Shown here: one piece after another, positions 256 through 2,806 of the stretch | Numbering within the stretch: position 1 is the first letter of the stretch | Layout: each line of letters opens with the position of its first letter | Source: Clostridia bacterium | GTDB taxonomy: Bacteria > Bacillota > Clostridia > Christensenellales > Aristaeellaceae | Assembly: GCA_017549335.1 (NCBI GenBank) | Contig: JAFYVB010000024.1 | Span: 1-42,175, forward strand | Direction: 5' to 3' | Length of the DNA: 42,175 nt | Translations under genes and position numbers: made by a program | The notes under the pieces: model-generated | The model's database searches: none | What the model saw: only the letters and a program-made list of their open reading frames with translations | Told to the model about the DNA's origin: nothing

Positions 256-924
256 TTAATCATAGGTGTGGCAGGCTTCGAACTTGGAAAAGGACATGGG
301 CCTGCTTTGACAGTTGGTGATGAGCCGGATGATCTCGGGCAGGTATTCGTCGTATTTGACTTCGATCAGCACAAAATCCGGCGATTGTGTCCGCGGACGG
401 GGCTGATCGACTTTAAGAAAATCGGGGCTGTACACGCCGGTGCGGATGTCGCTGTCCAGCGTCACGCGTACATTGGCAGGGCCGTATACGAAGGCTTCCC
501 GCAGATAATGCACCTGTACGCGGGGGCGAAGCAGCTCCCGCTTCATCTGCAGGCAGAGCTCGCGCACCAGTTCGCGGGAATCGCTGAGCATCCAGTCGAT
601 ATCGCCTTGGCAGATGCGTTCCACCTCACTGCGCGTCAGGCTGGTTCCCCGCTTGTGGCAAAGCTTTACCACCTTGCTTTTGCATTCCAGACGGAAATGC
701 TCCAGATTGTCATTGTAATACCGGATGCGGTACTTATGCCGGACGGGAACGCCCACCTGCTTTTCCATCAGCGCGCGGTCGGTGGGGGTATCAAAGTAAA
801 TGCTGTGGATCTCATAGGTGCCGTCAGGACGGGCGTGCTTATCCCGCTGCATAACGGCGGCCAAACGGGTGCGCAGCGCGGCGGCTTCCGCTGCCGTCAC
901 ACGGGTTTTGATTTCGTGGCGCAT
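256..924 (-). CDS. VTC-domain polyphosphate polymerase family protein
   Basis: 222 residues, the size of a stand-alone VTC catalytic domain. VTC domains form a beta-barrel tunnel that makes polyphosphate from nucleoside triphosphates. The expected basic and acidic tunnel motifs are visible in order: RHEIKTR at the N-terminus, SIYFDT, KYRIRYYN, LECKSK, a VHYLREAF strand, RVTLDSDIR and a C-terminal LIEVKYDEYLP. The start at 924 has AAAGGG eight bases upstream and a promoter further up (970-998). It is followed by the DUF4956 gene with a 14-base gap. The family assignment is strong; actual polyphosphate synthesis is inferred, since bacterial VTC-like proteins are little characterised. Confidence 0.88.
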   Translation of the reverse strand: MRHEIKTRVTAAEAAALRTRLAAVMQRDKHARPDGTYEIHSIYFDTPTDRALMEKQVGVPVRHKYRIRYYNDNLEHFRLECKSKVVKLCHKRGTSLTRSEVERICQGDIDWMLSDSRELVRELCLQMKRELLRPRVQVHYLREAFVYGPANVRVTLDSDIRTGVYSPDFLKVDQPRPRTQSPDFVLIEVKYDEYLPEIIRLITNCQSRPMSFSKFEACHTYD

Positions 925-1017: not shown

Positions 1018-1047
1018 TTGAAAGGAAGGGGGAGAATGTGGTAATAT
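1018..1047 (+). promoter_or_regulatory. promoter of the barnase/barstar-GDPD operon
   Basis: TTGAAA (1018-1023), an 18-base spacer and TAATAT (1042-1047), followed by GGAGG and the ATG at 1081. Confidence 0.55.
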
Positions 1048-1080
1048 ATCAAAAGAATATCCTTTTCGGAGGGAATTGAC

Positions 1081-1584
1081 ATGAATAAAAAGAAACAAGT
1101 GAAAAAAGGCGGCCTTTTCACGACGGTTCTGGCAGCGCTATTGCTGATTGTTTATTTCTTTATCGGCGGCGGTGACGGGGCGGATCTGCCCAAGGTTATA
1201 ACGCCCACTCAAGCACCTGCGCAGGTACAGAAAATCGACGAGGACGGCGCTTATACATCCAAGGAGGACGTGGCGCTGTATCTGCATACCTACGGCAAGC
1301 TGCCATCCAACTTTATTACAAAAAGCGAAGCGGAAAAGCTGGGATGGAACGGCGGCGGATTGGAATCGATCGCTCCCGGAAAGTGCATCGGCGGCGACCG
1401 CTTCGGCAATTATGAAGGGCTCCTGCCCAAGAAAAGCGGAAGAACCTATACCGAATGCGATATCGATACCCTGGGCAAAAGCAGCCGCGGGGCAAAGCGC
1501 ATCGTCTTTTCCAATGACGGGCTGATCTACTATACCCACGATCACTACGAAAGCTTTACGCTTCTGTACGGGGAGGGATCATGA
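1081..1584 (+). CDS. barnase-family ribonuclease with N-terminal membrane/signal segment
   Basis: 167 residues. A positively charged N-terminus is followed by a hydrophobic segment (about residues 11-29) that would export or anchor the protein, then a TP-rich linker and a complete barnase/N1-T1 domain (about residues 57-163). Barnase landmarks are all present: the VALYLHTYGKLPSNFITK block including the Lys equivalent to barnase K27 (K81), the LGW and IGGDRFGN strands, the catalytic Glu (E125 in YTECD), two Arg equivalents (R136, R140) and the catalytic His (H155 in HDHYESF). It should therefore cleave RNA outside the membrane. The stop overlaps the start of the barstar-GDPD gene by four bases (ATGA), so toxin and inhibitor are translationally coupled. 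No cleavage motif for signal peptidase is obvious, so anchoring versus release is open. Confidence 0.92.
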   Translation: MNKKKQVKKGGLFTTVLAALLLIVYFFIGGGDGADLPKVITPTQAPAQVQKIDEDGAYTSKEDVALYLHTYGKLPSNFITKSEAEKLGWNGGGLESIAPGKCIGGDRFGNYEGLLPKKSGRTYTECDIDTLGKSSRGAKRIVFSNDGLIYYTHDHYESFTLLYGEGS

Positions 1585-2756
1585 TGCGGCGCGTTGTCCT
1601 TGATCTTCGAGCCTTTGATGACCGCGAACAGCTGCACGCTTATCTGCAGGAAAAACTGGGTTTACCTGCCTATTACGGCAGGAATCTGGATGCATTGTAT
1701 GATTGCCTGACCGATACTTGGGAGGAGACGGGCATCATTTTGCATCTCCCAGAAAGAATGGGAAACTATACCCCGGCGCTTCAGGAAGTATTTGAGGACG
1801 CCTGCAGGGTAAATTCCAATCTGCATATGCTGGAGGAAGAGAATATGAAGCTTGCCAATGATAAGAATGCCGCTTTCCCGCGGCTTTGCGCCCATCGCGG
1901 ATACAATTTTATCGCTCCCGAAAACACGCTGCCTGCCTTTGCGCTGGCGGTATCCATGGGCGCTCAGGAGATCGAACTGGATCTGTGGCCCAGCAGGGAC
2001 GGCGATCTGATCGTCTGCCACGACCCCAAGGTGGATCGCACCACCAACGGCACGGGCAGCATCAGCGATTTGACCACCAAGGAGATCCGGATGCTGGATG
2101 CGGGCGAAAAGTTTTCCCCTGCCTTCAAGGGAACGAAACTGCCTTTGTTTGAAGAAGTGCTGGATCTCTTCGGCGGCAAGGTGATTTTTAATATTCATAT
2201 CAAATCGCCTGTCCGCACCAAGGTAAAAGCCGAAAGAATGAGCCAGCGCAGCCGCGAGTGGAGCCATTTCTATAACAATCGTATCGAAACCTTCCCGCCG
2301 CTGCCGGTGGGGATTGAGGAGATTGTTCCCGAGTACGAGAACCGTCCGCTGCTGCCCTATCCCGAAAAGGATTTCCAAAAGATCCTCGATACGCTGGATG
2401 CGTTCAAGTGCCGCGAGCATGCCTACATCGCCGGCGAAAAGGACGTGCTGCACACCGCCCGTGAGATGGCGCCCGATATCGCCCGCTGCTGTCTGGAAGG
2501 GCACATGAATTTCACCATCGTGGATCATGCCATTGAATACGGCTGCAAAAAGCTGCAGTTCTGCAAGAATCTGACCACGCAGGCCATGATTGACAAGGCC
2601 AGGAAACACGGACTGATCTGCAATCTCTTCTGGGCGGACAGCGCCGAGGAAGCCAAAGCGTATATGGATATCGGTATTGACTGCGTGCTGACCAACAATT
2701 TCGCCGCCGTCAAAGCAGGTTTGGAAGCGATGGGCGCGGGATCTTTTGAACGCTGA
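1581..2756 (+). CDS. barstar-glycerophosphodiester phosphodiesterase in-frame fusion
   Basis: 391 residues joining two unrelated domains. Residues 1-88 are a complete barstar, the intracellular inhibitor of barnase, with the YYGRNLDALYDCL helix that plugs the nuclease active site (D37 and D41 equivalent to barstar D35 and D39). Residues 100-391 are a GDPD TIM barrel that hydrolyses glycerophosphodiesters, with HRG (H105, R106), PEN (E114), the metal pair in IELDLW (E132, D134) and the CHDP catalytic His (H147). Codon 89 is an ATG (1845) with a perfectly placed GGAGG at 1832-1836, eight bases upstream, so a free 303-residue GDPD could also be made. The barstar part ends exactly where a stand-alone barstar would, which suggests two formerly separate genes whose stop was lost. 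No signal peptide is present, fitting cytoplasmic immunity. Confidence 0.9.
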   Translation: MMRRVVLDLRAFDDREQLHAYLQEKLGLPAYYGRNLDALYDCLTDTWEETGIILHLPERMGNYTPALQEVFEDACRVNSNLHMLEEENMKLANDKNAAFPRLCAHRGYNFIAPENTLPAFALAVSMGAQEIELDLWPSRDGDLIVCHDPKVDRTTNGTGSISDLTTKEIRMLDAGEKFSPAFKGTKLPLFEEVLDLFGGKVIFNIHIKSPVRTKVKAERMSQRSREWSHFYNNRIETFPPLPVGIEEIVPEYENRPLLPYPEKDFQKILDTLDAFKCREHAYIAGEKDVLHTAREMAPDIARCCLEGHMNFTIVDHAIEYGCKKLQFCKNLTTQAMIDKARKHGLICNLFWADSAEEAKAYMDIGIDCVLTNNFAAVKAGLEAMGAGSFER

Positions 2757-2765
2757 TAAAACAAA

Positions 2766-2806
2766 AAATGCGGCAGGGGCAAATGCTCCGCGCCGCACTT
2801 TTTTTG
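2766..2806 (+). terminator. intrinsic terminator after the barstar-GDPD gene
   Basis: TGCGGC (2769-2774) pairs with GCCGCA (2792-2797) with additional GGGG/CTCC pairing inside, followed by a run of seven T from 2799. Confidence 0.8.

What the first reader, a model, noticed from the sequence alone, without database searches (positions are those of the whole stretch)
1081..2756. Barnase followed by a barstar-GDPD fusion with a retained internal start
A secreted-type RNase overlaps, by ATGA, a gene joining its inhibitor barstar to a glycerophosphodiesterase. Codon 89, exactly at the domain joint, is an ATG with GGAGG eight bases upstream, so one mRNA could give both a bifunctional immunity protein and free GDPD. 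Fusion of immunity to a lipid-catabolic enzyme would tether RNase immunity to phospholipid turnover, or is a recent stop-codon loss.
Basis: partly seen in the sequence, partly recalled or inferred. Interest (0 to 1): 0.72.

Follow-up and report, generated by a model that had tools for sequence, protein, structure and literature searches.

The report
Barstar inhibitor fused to downstream enzyme
In this bacterium the gene for the inhibitor of an RNA-cutting enzyme has merged with the metabolic gene behind it; a related gut species shares the merger and other relatives have made similar ones with other enzymes, so it looks like a recurring habit of this gene pair rather than a link between RNA toxicity and fat metabolism.

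Summary
A barnase-type RNase gene (1081-1584) overlaps by ATGA an uninterrupted 391-codon gene joining barstar to a GDPD-family domain (1581-2756). Codon 89 is an ATG with GGAGG 8 nt upstream. The fusion is neither an assembly error nor very recent: a second species (80% identity) has the same open fusion beside the same neighbour, while in the other nine genomes of the genus barstar is free. In a free GDPD orthologue the best-scored of three candidate start ATGs lies exactly where codon 89 lies, so the internal ATG is probably the old GDPD start. I also found barstar fused, behind a barnase, to AsnA, a hexapeptide-repeat transferase, a GH3 enzyme and DUF1653: five partner types, 13 genomes. 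Unrelated partners argue against a specific link to lipid turnover, and this GDPD clade has His at the third metal ligand, so its activity is unproven. Best reading: a working RNase-immunity pair whose inhibitor became joined, by loss of the stop between neighbouring genes, to the next enzyme; the fusion serves as immunity protein, and some free GDPD is probably still made. No structure model could be obtained; nothing was tested at the bench.

The parts
1018..1047 (+). promoter-like site TTGAAA-18-TAATAT with TG before the second hexamer, upstream of barnase; both hexamers are the same in L044
   Evidence: Consensus match only: 2 found in the region, shuffles give 1.9 on average.
1068..1072 (+). 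GGAGG ribosome-binding site of barnase
   Evidence: Sequence, (dG -10.6).
1081..1584 (+). barnase-type RNase, 167 aa: hydrophobic N-terminal anchor or signal (about residues 10-28), Pro/Thr-containing linker, one RNase domain (64-161)
   Evidence: PF00545 E 2.6e-21; best solved match barnase E 5.2e-30; K27, E73, R83, R87, H102, Y103 equivalents all present; hydropathy peak 2.36.
1581..1584 (+). ATGA overlap of barnase stop and barstar start (a second ATG follows at 1584)
   Evidence: same ATGATG in L044.
1584..1808 (+). barstar domain of the fusion (Pfam residues 2-76; by comparison with free barstars it runs on to about residue 85)
   Evidence: PF01337 E 1e-17; matches solved barstars; the D...D pair is present (NLDALYD).
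1832..1836 (+). GGAGG before the internal start; also codes for Leu-Glu-Glu
   Evidence: dG -9.3; 11 of 266 internal ATGs as good or better, this one included.
1845..1847 (+). internal ATG, codon 89, at the domain joint
   Evidence: Aligned ATG in L044; same distance to the F/Y-P-R-L-C motif as the best-scored of three candidate start ATGs of the free orthologue in G005.
1845..2753 (+). GDPD-family domain, 303 aa if started at codon 89
   Evidence: PF03009 E 2.3e-30; H105, R106, E114, E132, D134, H147 kept; His206 where ttGDPD has Glu119.
2769..2805 (+). probable intrinsic terminator: hairpin 2769-2797 and seven T
   Evidence: RNA fold of 2762-2806 -22.5 kcal/mol, z -4.2; the pattern scan did not list it.
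256..924 (-). divergent VTC-domain gene (polyphosphate polymerase type, function recalled), neighbour kept in L044 at 88% identity
   Evidence: PF09359 E 5.1e-37.

Best explanation
A short operon codes for an exported barnase-type RNase and its cytoplasmic barstar inhibitor. The barstar gene has lost the stop that once separated it from the next gene, a GDPD-family enzyme. The 391-residue product is made by translation coupled to barnase (ATGA) and is proposed to neutralise barnase before export with its barstar half, while the GDPD half keeps its own, unknown reaction. Codon 89 is probably the former GDPD start and may still yield some free 303-residue GDPD. Barstar appears to tolerate a cargo at its C-terminus, so such mergers arise repeatedly when an enzyme gene lies close behind barstar. 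Shown: the open frame, its conservation in two species, intact key residues of barnase and barstar, free orthologues that start at or within about 10 residues of the joint, and five partner types. Inferred: co-transcription, export, inhibition by the fusion, use of the internal start, stop loss as the route.
For: Same fusion, neighbour and internal ATG in L044. Barstar free in 9 of 11 genus genomes (frames 88-101 aa). Free GDPD orthologues in G005 (70%) and G010 (62%); the one in G009 runs off its contig. Start and Shine-Dalgarno comparison. Constraint: barstar dN 0.23 with dS beyond what NG86 can give, GDPD dN 0.10 and dS 0.82. Barnase catalytic residues intact, barstar D...D intact. Barnase directly upstream of barstar-AsnA (3 genomes), barstar-hexapeptide (4), barstar-GH3 (1), barstar-DUF1653 (3). 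In 14 loci (of 55 listed, duplicates and fusions included) an ORF that reads like a real gene begins 10-47 bp behind the barstar stop.
Against: No expression, binding or activity data. GGAGG may only reflect Glu codons; the Glu run of the linker is itself conserved. Only two genomes of one genus carry this fusion; L044 is a MAG and the window's genome is incomplete (41 contigs). GDPD activity is doubtful (His206). A good start at the joint is not general: none in the GH3 fusion, none in three of four hexapeptide fusions (the fourth, G019, has linker ATGs with dG -6.8 at best), none in two of three DUF1653 fusions (an ATG with poor pairing, -3.1, in G477), and one of three AsnA fusions has none.
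Confidence: 0.78

Rival explanations
1. Functional coupling: the operon is a phosphate-scavenging set. Secreted barnase mines RNA, GDPD mines glycerophosphodiesters, and the neighbouring VTC protein stores phosphate as polyphosphate; fusion keeps inhibitor and GDPD co-expressed.
For: VTC-domain gene beside barnase in both fusion genomes. A related Bacillus RNase, balifase, in an operon with its inhibitor, is induced by phosphate starvation (PMC5021464, passages including part of the abstract).
Against: Other barstar partners (AsnA, GH3, hexapeptide transferase, DUF1653) have no evident phosphate theme. His at the metal-ligand place. No Pho site was tested; VTC gave no hit in the 8 other loci with barnase that searched.
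Confidence: 0.15
2. The fusion couples RNase immunity to phospholipid turnover, for example by substrate- or membrane-dependent control of barstar.
For: Physical fusion kept in two species.
Against: Five unrelated partner types; the free GDPD orthologues of G005 and G010 lie beside sulfatase-like genes, not barnase (gene type recalled from sequence); doubtful lipid activity.
Confidence: 0.04
3. The barstar half is decaying baggage: only GDPD matters and the long form is translational noise.
For: Barstar half evolves faster than GDPD (70% against 86% identity).
Against: Intact barnase upstream, barstar key residues kept, many synonymous changes while dN is 0.23; no other barstar match in G000 or G008 (both genomes incomplete), so the barnase would lack an inhibitor.
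Confidence: 0.08
4. Assembly or binning artefact joining two genes.
For: L044 is a MAG (title) and both genomes are incomplete (86 and 82%).
Against: Same joint at 80% protein identity in two different genomes.
Confidence: 0.01

Closest known systems
Barnase-barstar of Bacillus amyloliquefaciens
   Same: RNase domain with the catalytic residues, barstar with the D...D pair
   Different: Inhibitor continues into an enzyme; RNase has a hydrophobic anchor and a Pro/Thr-containing linker
Balifase and its inhibitor YrdF in one operon, Bacillus licheniformis (PMC5021464, passages)
   Same: RNase and barstar orthologue in one operon
   Different: Inhibitor not reported as fused in the passages seen
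Toxin-then-immunity gene pairs with Imm-Barstar (PMC3482391, passages)
   Same: RNase gene first, barstar second; barstar is specific to barnase-like domains
   Different: In the passages seen GDPD appears as a toxin domain countered by SuFu immunity; here it is fused to the immunity protein
GDPD (UgpQ, ttGDPD 2pz0)
   Same: HR, EN, ExD, HD motifs and Pfam match
   Different: Glu119 of ttGDPD is His206 here; below the NCBIfam equivalog cut-off (132.7 against 264 bits)

Membership tests
Barnase / N1-T1 RNase (PF00545) | Family profile above cut-off | tested here: met
   76.4 bits against 24
Barnase / N1-T1 RNase (PF00545) | Catalytic Glu73, Arg83, Arg87, His102 equivalents | tested here: met
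   All present, plus K27 and Y103 (residue roles recalled)
Barnase / N1-T1 RNase (PF00545) | RNase activity and export | not testable with these tools
   Hydrophobic N-terminus seen
Barstar (PF01337) | Family profile above cut-off | tested here: met
   64.3 bits against 23.4
Barstar (PF01337) | DxxxD motif | tested here: met
   NLDALYD; motif named in PMC3482391
Barstar (PF01337) | Binds and inhibits the neighbouring RNase | not testable with these tools
   Adjacent barnase only
GDPD (PF03009) | HR...EN...ExD...HD motif | tested here: met
   H105 R106, E114 N115, E132/D134, H147 D148 (motif as in PMC4926365 passage)
GDPD (PF03009) | Third metal ligand Glu (ttGDPD E119) | tested here: not met
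   His206; E44, D46 and E119 bind the metal in ttGDPD (PMC5095149 passage) and Ala at any of them inactivates it (PMC4926365 passage); whether His can serve is unknown
GDPD (PF03009) | Hydrolysis of glycerophosphodiesters | not testable with these tools
   No assay

The most novel reading that the evidence does not exclude
Barstar fusion is a selected natural gene entanglement: by merging with a useful, sometimes only, enzyme copy behind it (for example the single AsnA match in each of three genomes), the immunity gene cannot be lost or mutated without harming the enzyme, and the RNase operon is thereby locked into the chromosome; internal starts keep enzyme supply during the transition.
Probability: 0.12. 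Interest if true: 0.72.

Novelty: new variant of a known kind. Interest (0 to 1): 0.45.

Why it matters
It turns a single odd gene into a pattern: an inhibitor that repeatedly accepts unrelated enzymes at its C-terminus in one bacterial order. That gives natural examples of stages in gene fusion (free pair; fusion with the old start kept; fusion without it) and a testable case of whether immunity genes gain stability by being merged with metabolic genes. In the five searches of the open library that used barstar with other words I saw no report of such fusions, from listings and a few passages; that is no proof of absence.

Tried and rejected
Assembly error: rejected, the joint recurs in L044. 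Many long barstar frames of the genome searches turned out, by my reading, to be out-of-frame upstream stretches before an unfused barstar, not fusions: L112-L114, L116-L120, L128, L130, L131 and L132, L134, L136-L145. In L132, L134 and L136 the frame I read (232, 211 and 86 aa) is shorter than the search listed (477, 256 and 226); I did not resolve why. L124 is cut by the contig end. L135 (G024) is a barstar behind a barnase with extensions at both ends that I did not identify. HAD-barstar (L104) and barstar-ACT (L106) have no barnase hit; L105 looks like a double barstar; in L125 and L133 a weak barstar match lies inside a larger protein. None of these is in the count of 13. Long frames listed but not read: G027:C181, G242:C7, G068:C3, G068:C40, G062:C1 (at 603115), G083:C54, G329:C13, G550:C62, and frames of 131-295 aa in the phylum draw.

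Trees of barnase domains (62 rows) and barstars (48 rows): the GDPD, AsnA, hexapeptide and GH3 barstars fall in four places, but deep forks are weak, long branches meet, and short alignments cannot settle them. The window barnase groups with single-domain barnases of other genera (98/98) while its barstar lies in a 17-row group (96/96) that holds most of its own genus; I could not decide between reassortment and weak signal. In the barnase tree the GDPD, AsnA and GH3 loci share one 13-row clade (87/80), so a clade-specific propensity is possible. DUF1653 loci were in neither tree.

Promoter and terminator scans were no better than shuffles; only conservation and the fold speak for them. PMC6439198 (passages) reports a cell-wall-binding domain fused to barstar that still assembles with barnase fusions; the passages do not say which end. 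Structure prediction could not be run, so no fold search was made.

Full report
What is there. The window holds a barnase-type RNase gene at 1081-1584 (167 aa, PF00545, E 2.6e-21) whose TGA overlaps the ATG of a 391-codon gene at 1581-2756. That gene has an N-terminal barstar domain (PF01337, residues 2-76, E 1e-17) and a C-terminal GDPD-family domain (PF03009, from residue 105, E 2.3e-30). Codon 89 is ATG at 1845, with GGAGG at 1832-1836 and an 8-nt spacer. A promoter-like site at 1018-1047, whose hexamers recur in the nearest relative, precedes barnase, and a strong hairpin with a T run follows the fusion (2769-2805), so the two genes are probably one transcript.

The fusion is shared, not an artefact. 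The GTDB contig scan (80 stretches matched a pattern, 1 encoded a relative) gave L044, a Clostridia MAG from sheep rectum, whose contig matches handle G008. It carries barnase, the same ATGATG overlap, an uninterrupted 384-codon fusion with 80% identity, and the same divergent VTC gene at 88%. The stop noted for G008 is, by position, the end of the 384-codon frame, over which the match runs on. In the 11 genomes of the genus, barstar is present in 11 of 11; in 9 of them its frame is only 88-101 aa, against 412 and 391 in the two fusion genomes. Free GDPD orthologues occur in G005 (70%) and G010 (62%); G009 has one that runs off its contig. The fusion is therefore derived and most simply arose before the two species split. 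In barstar dN is 0.23 and NG86 could give no dS (too many synonymous changes); in GDPD dN is 0.10 and dS 0.82. It is thus not a very recent event, and both halves look constrained.

The internal start. In L044 an ATG aligns with codon 89 although the linker is only 50% identical, and AGGAG lies upstream. In the free G005 orthologue three ATGs could be the start; the one with the strongest pairing (dG -11.1) stands at exactly the same distance before the F/Y-P-R-L-C motif (M plus 10 residues). The G010 and G009 genes start a few residues further in. Against 266 in-frame internal ATGs of 31 genes called by a simple codon model (76% of the window coding), 11 (codon 89 included) reach its predicted pairing energy; for the L044 site 6 of 266 do. 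Of 21 ATG starts of those genes, 16 are at least as strong as codon 89. This supports a retained, probably still usable start. It does not prove use: the GGAGG also encodes Glu residues that are themselves conserved.

It is one of several. Of 308 genomes searched in the family, 239 have barstar, against 20 of 398 in a phylum-wide draw. I read most, not all, of the long barstar frames displayed (unread ones are named under Tried and rejected). C-terminal enzyme fusions with barnase directly upstream are: barstar-GDPD in G000 and G008; barstar-AsnA in G134, G135 and G137 (PF03590, E below 1e-98); barstar-hexapeptide transferase in G019, G214, G215 and G216 (PF00132); barstar-GH3 in G020. That is 10 of 239 genomes, a lower bound, because the frames of about eleven genomes were never displayed and some were not read. 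In another family of the order, barstar-DUF1653 occurs in G477, G572 and G604 (PF07866), 3 of the 36 genomes with barstar outside the window's family in the order draw. In the phylum draw no match with E up to 1.3e-12, other than the window's, lay in a frame above 128 aa; weaker matches in frames of 131-295 aa were not examined. Four of the five partner types are seen in more than one genome; GH3 in one only. The fused AsnA is the only AsnA match in each of the three genomes, which are 72-89% complete.

Stages of fusion. An ATG at the joint is kept in both GDPD fusions (dG -9.3, -9.7) and in two of three AsnA fusions (G137 -9.5; G135 weaker, -6.6, which 44 of 266 background sites match), and is absent in G134. 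In the GH3 fusion the ATGs near the joint pair poorly (-3.9 at best). Three of four hexapeptide fusions have none in the linker; G019 has three (-6.8, -2.1, -4.4). Of three DUF1653 fusions, G477 has an ATG at the joint with poor pairing (-3.1), the other two none. Free barstars in this family are often followed closely by another gene: in 14 loci of 55 listed (duplicates and fusions included) an ORF that reads like a real gene begins 10-47 bp behind. A simple route is loss of the stop between close, in-frame neighbours, followed in some lines by loss of the inner start.

Function. Barnase has all six checked residues; barstar keeps the D...D pair in every fused copy read. The GDPD half keeps HR, EN, ExD and HD, but has His206 where ttGDPD has the metal ligand Glu119 (ligand: PMC5095149 passage). 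This His is shared by all five orthologues seen (G000, G008, G005, G009, G010), while 18 of 18 other GDPD-like loci that cover the place have Glu (7 of the 30 loci given showed no hit over the place). Ala at that ligand inactivates ttGDPD (PMC4926365, passage). So the GDPD reaction is uncertain. The unrelated partners make a specific link between RNase immunity and lipid turnover unlikely. A phosphate-scavenging theme remains possible, from the VTC neighbour and the phosphate-induced balifase operon (PMC5021464, passages).

Literature. Searches used barstar with other words; I saw listings, and passages of PMC3482391 and PMC6439198. None showed barstar fused to a metabolic enzyme in nature. 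PMC3482391 lists GDPD as a toxin domain and names SuFu-type immunity against it, not barstar. The library holds only open-licence papers.

Verdict. Observation confirmed; interpretation partly supported. A new variant of a known kind (barnase-barstar), of moderate interest because it recurs with different enzymes.

Noticed in passing
L047-L054, L035, L036, L088, L091, L093, L108, L116, L118: 16 of 46 loci with a barnase hit (49 loci given) carry two barnase domains in one open frame before one barstar. In 16 of 16 exactly one domain keeps the catalytic His (first domain without it in 4, second in 12), while R83 and R87 remain in all and E73 in 15 of the 16 His-less domains; 30 of 30 single domains keep the His. 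A tandem of one active-looking and one His-less RNase domain, the His apparently lost at least twice.
   Followed up: partly
window 2196-2198 (residue 206 of the fusion); L003, L004, L005, L044: A GDPD clade with His in place of the third metal-binding Glu (NIHIK for NIEIK); free members in G005 and G010 lie next to sulfatase-like genes (sulfatase recalled from sequence).
   Followed up: partly
family-wide: Barstar is present in 239 of 308 genomes of the window's family but 20 of 398 in the phylum draw: nearly a core trait of this family.
   Followed up: no
L086, L090, L092, L097, L099, L100, L112, L113, L117: In nine genomes of one genus the barnase-barstar pair is followed by a purine nucleoside phosphorylase-like gene, 10-47 bp behind in eight and 236 bp in one, which would fit use of RNA as a nucleoside source (gene identity recalled from sequence, not scanned).
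   Followed up: no
L126, L127, L129: Barstar fused to DUF1653 behind barnase in three genomes of another family.
   Followed up: partly
L135 1264-1878: A barstar behind a barnase in G024 with unidentified extensions of about 80 residues before and 70 after the matched part.
   Followed up: no
L033 2317-2547 and contig start: A second copy of the GDPD C-terminal end follows the gene, and the contig start looks adapter-derived; probably assembly faults.
   Followed up: no
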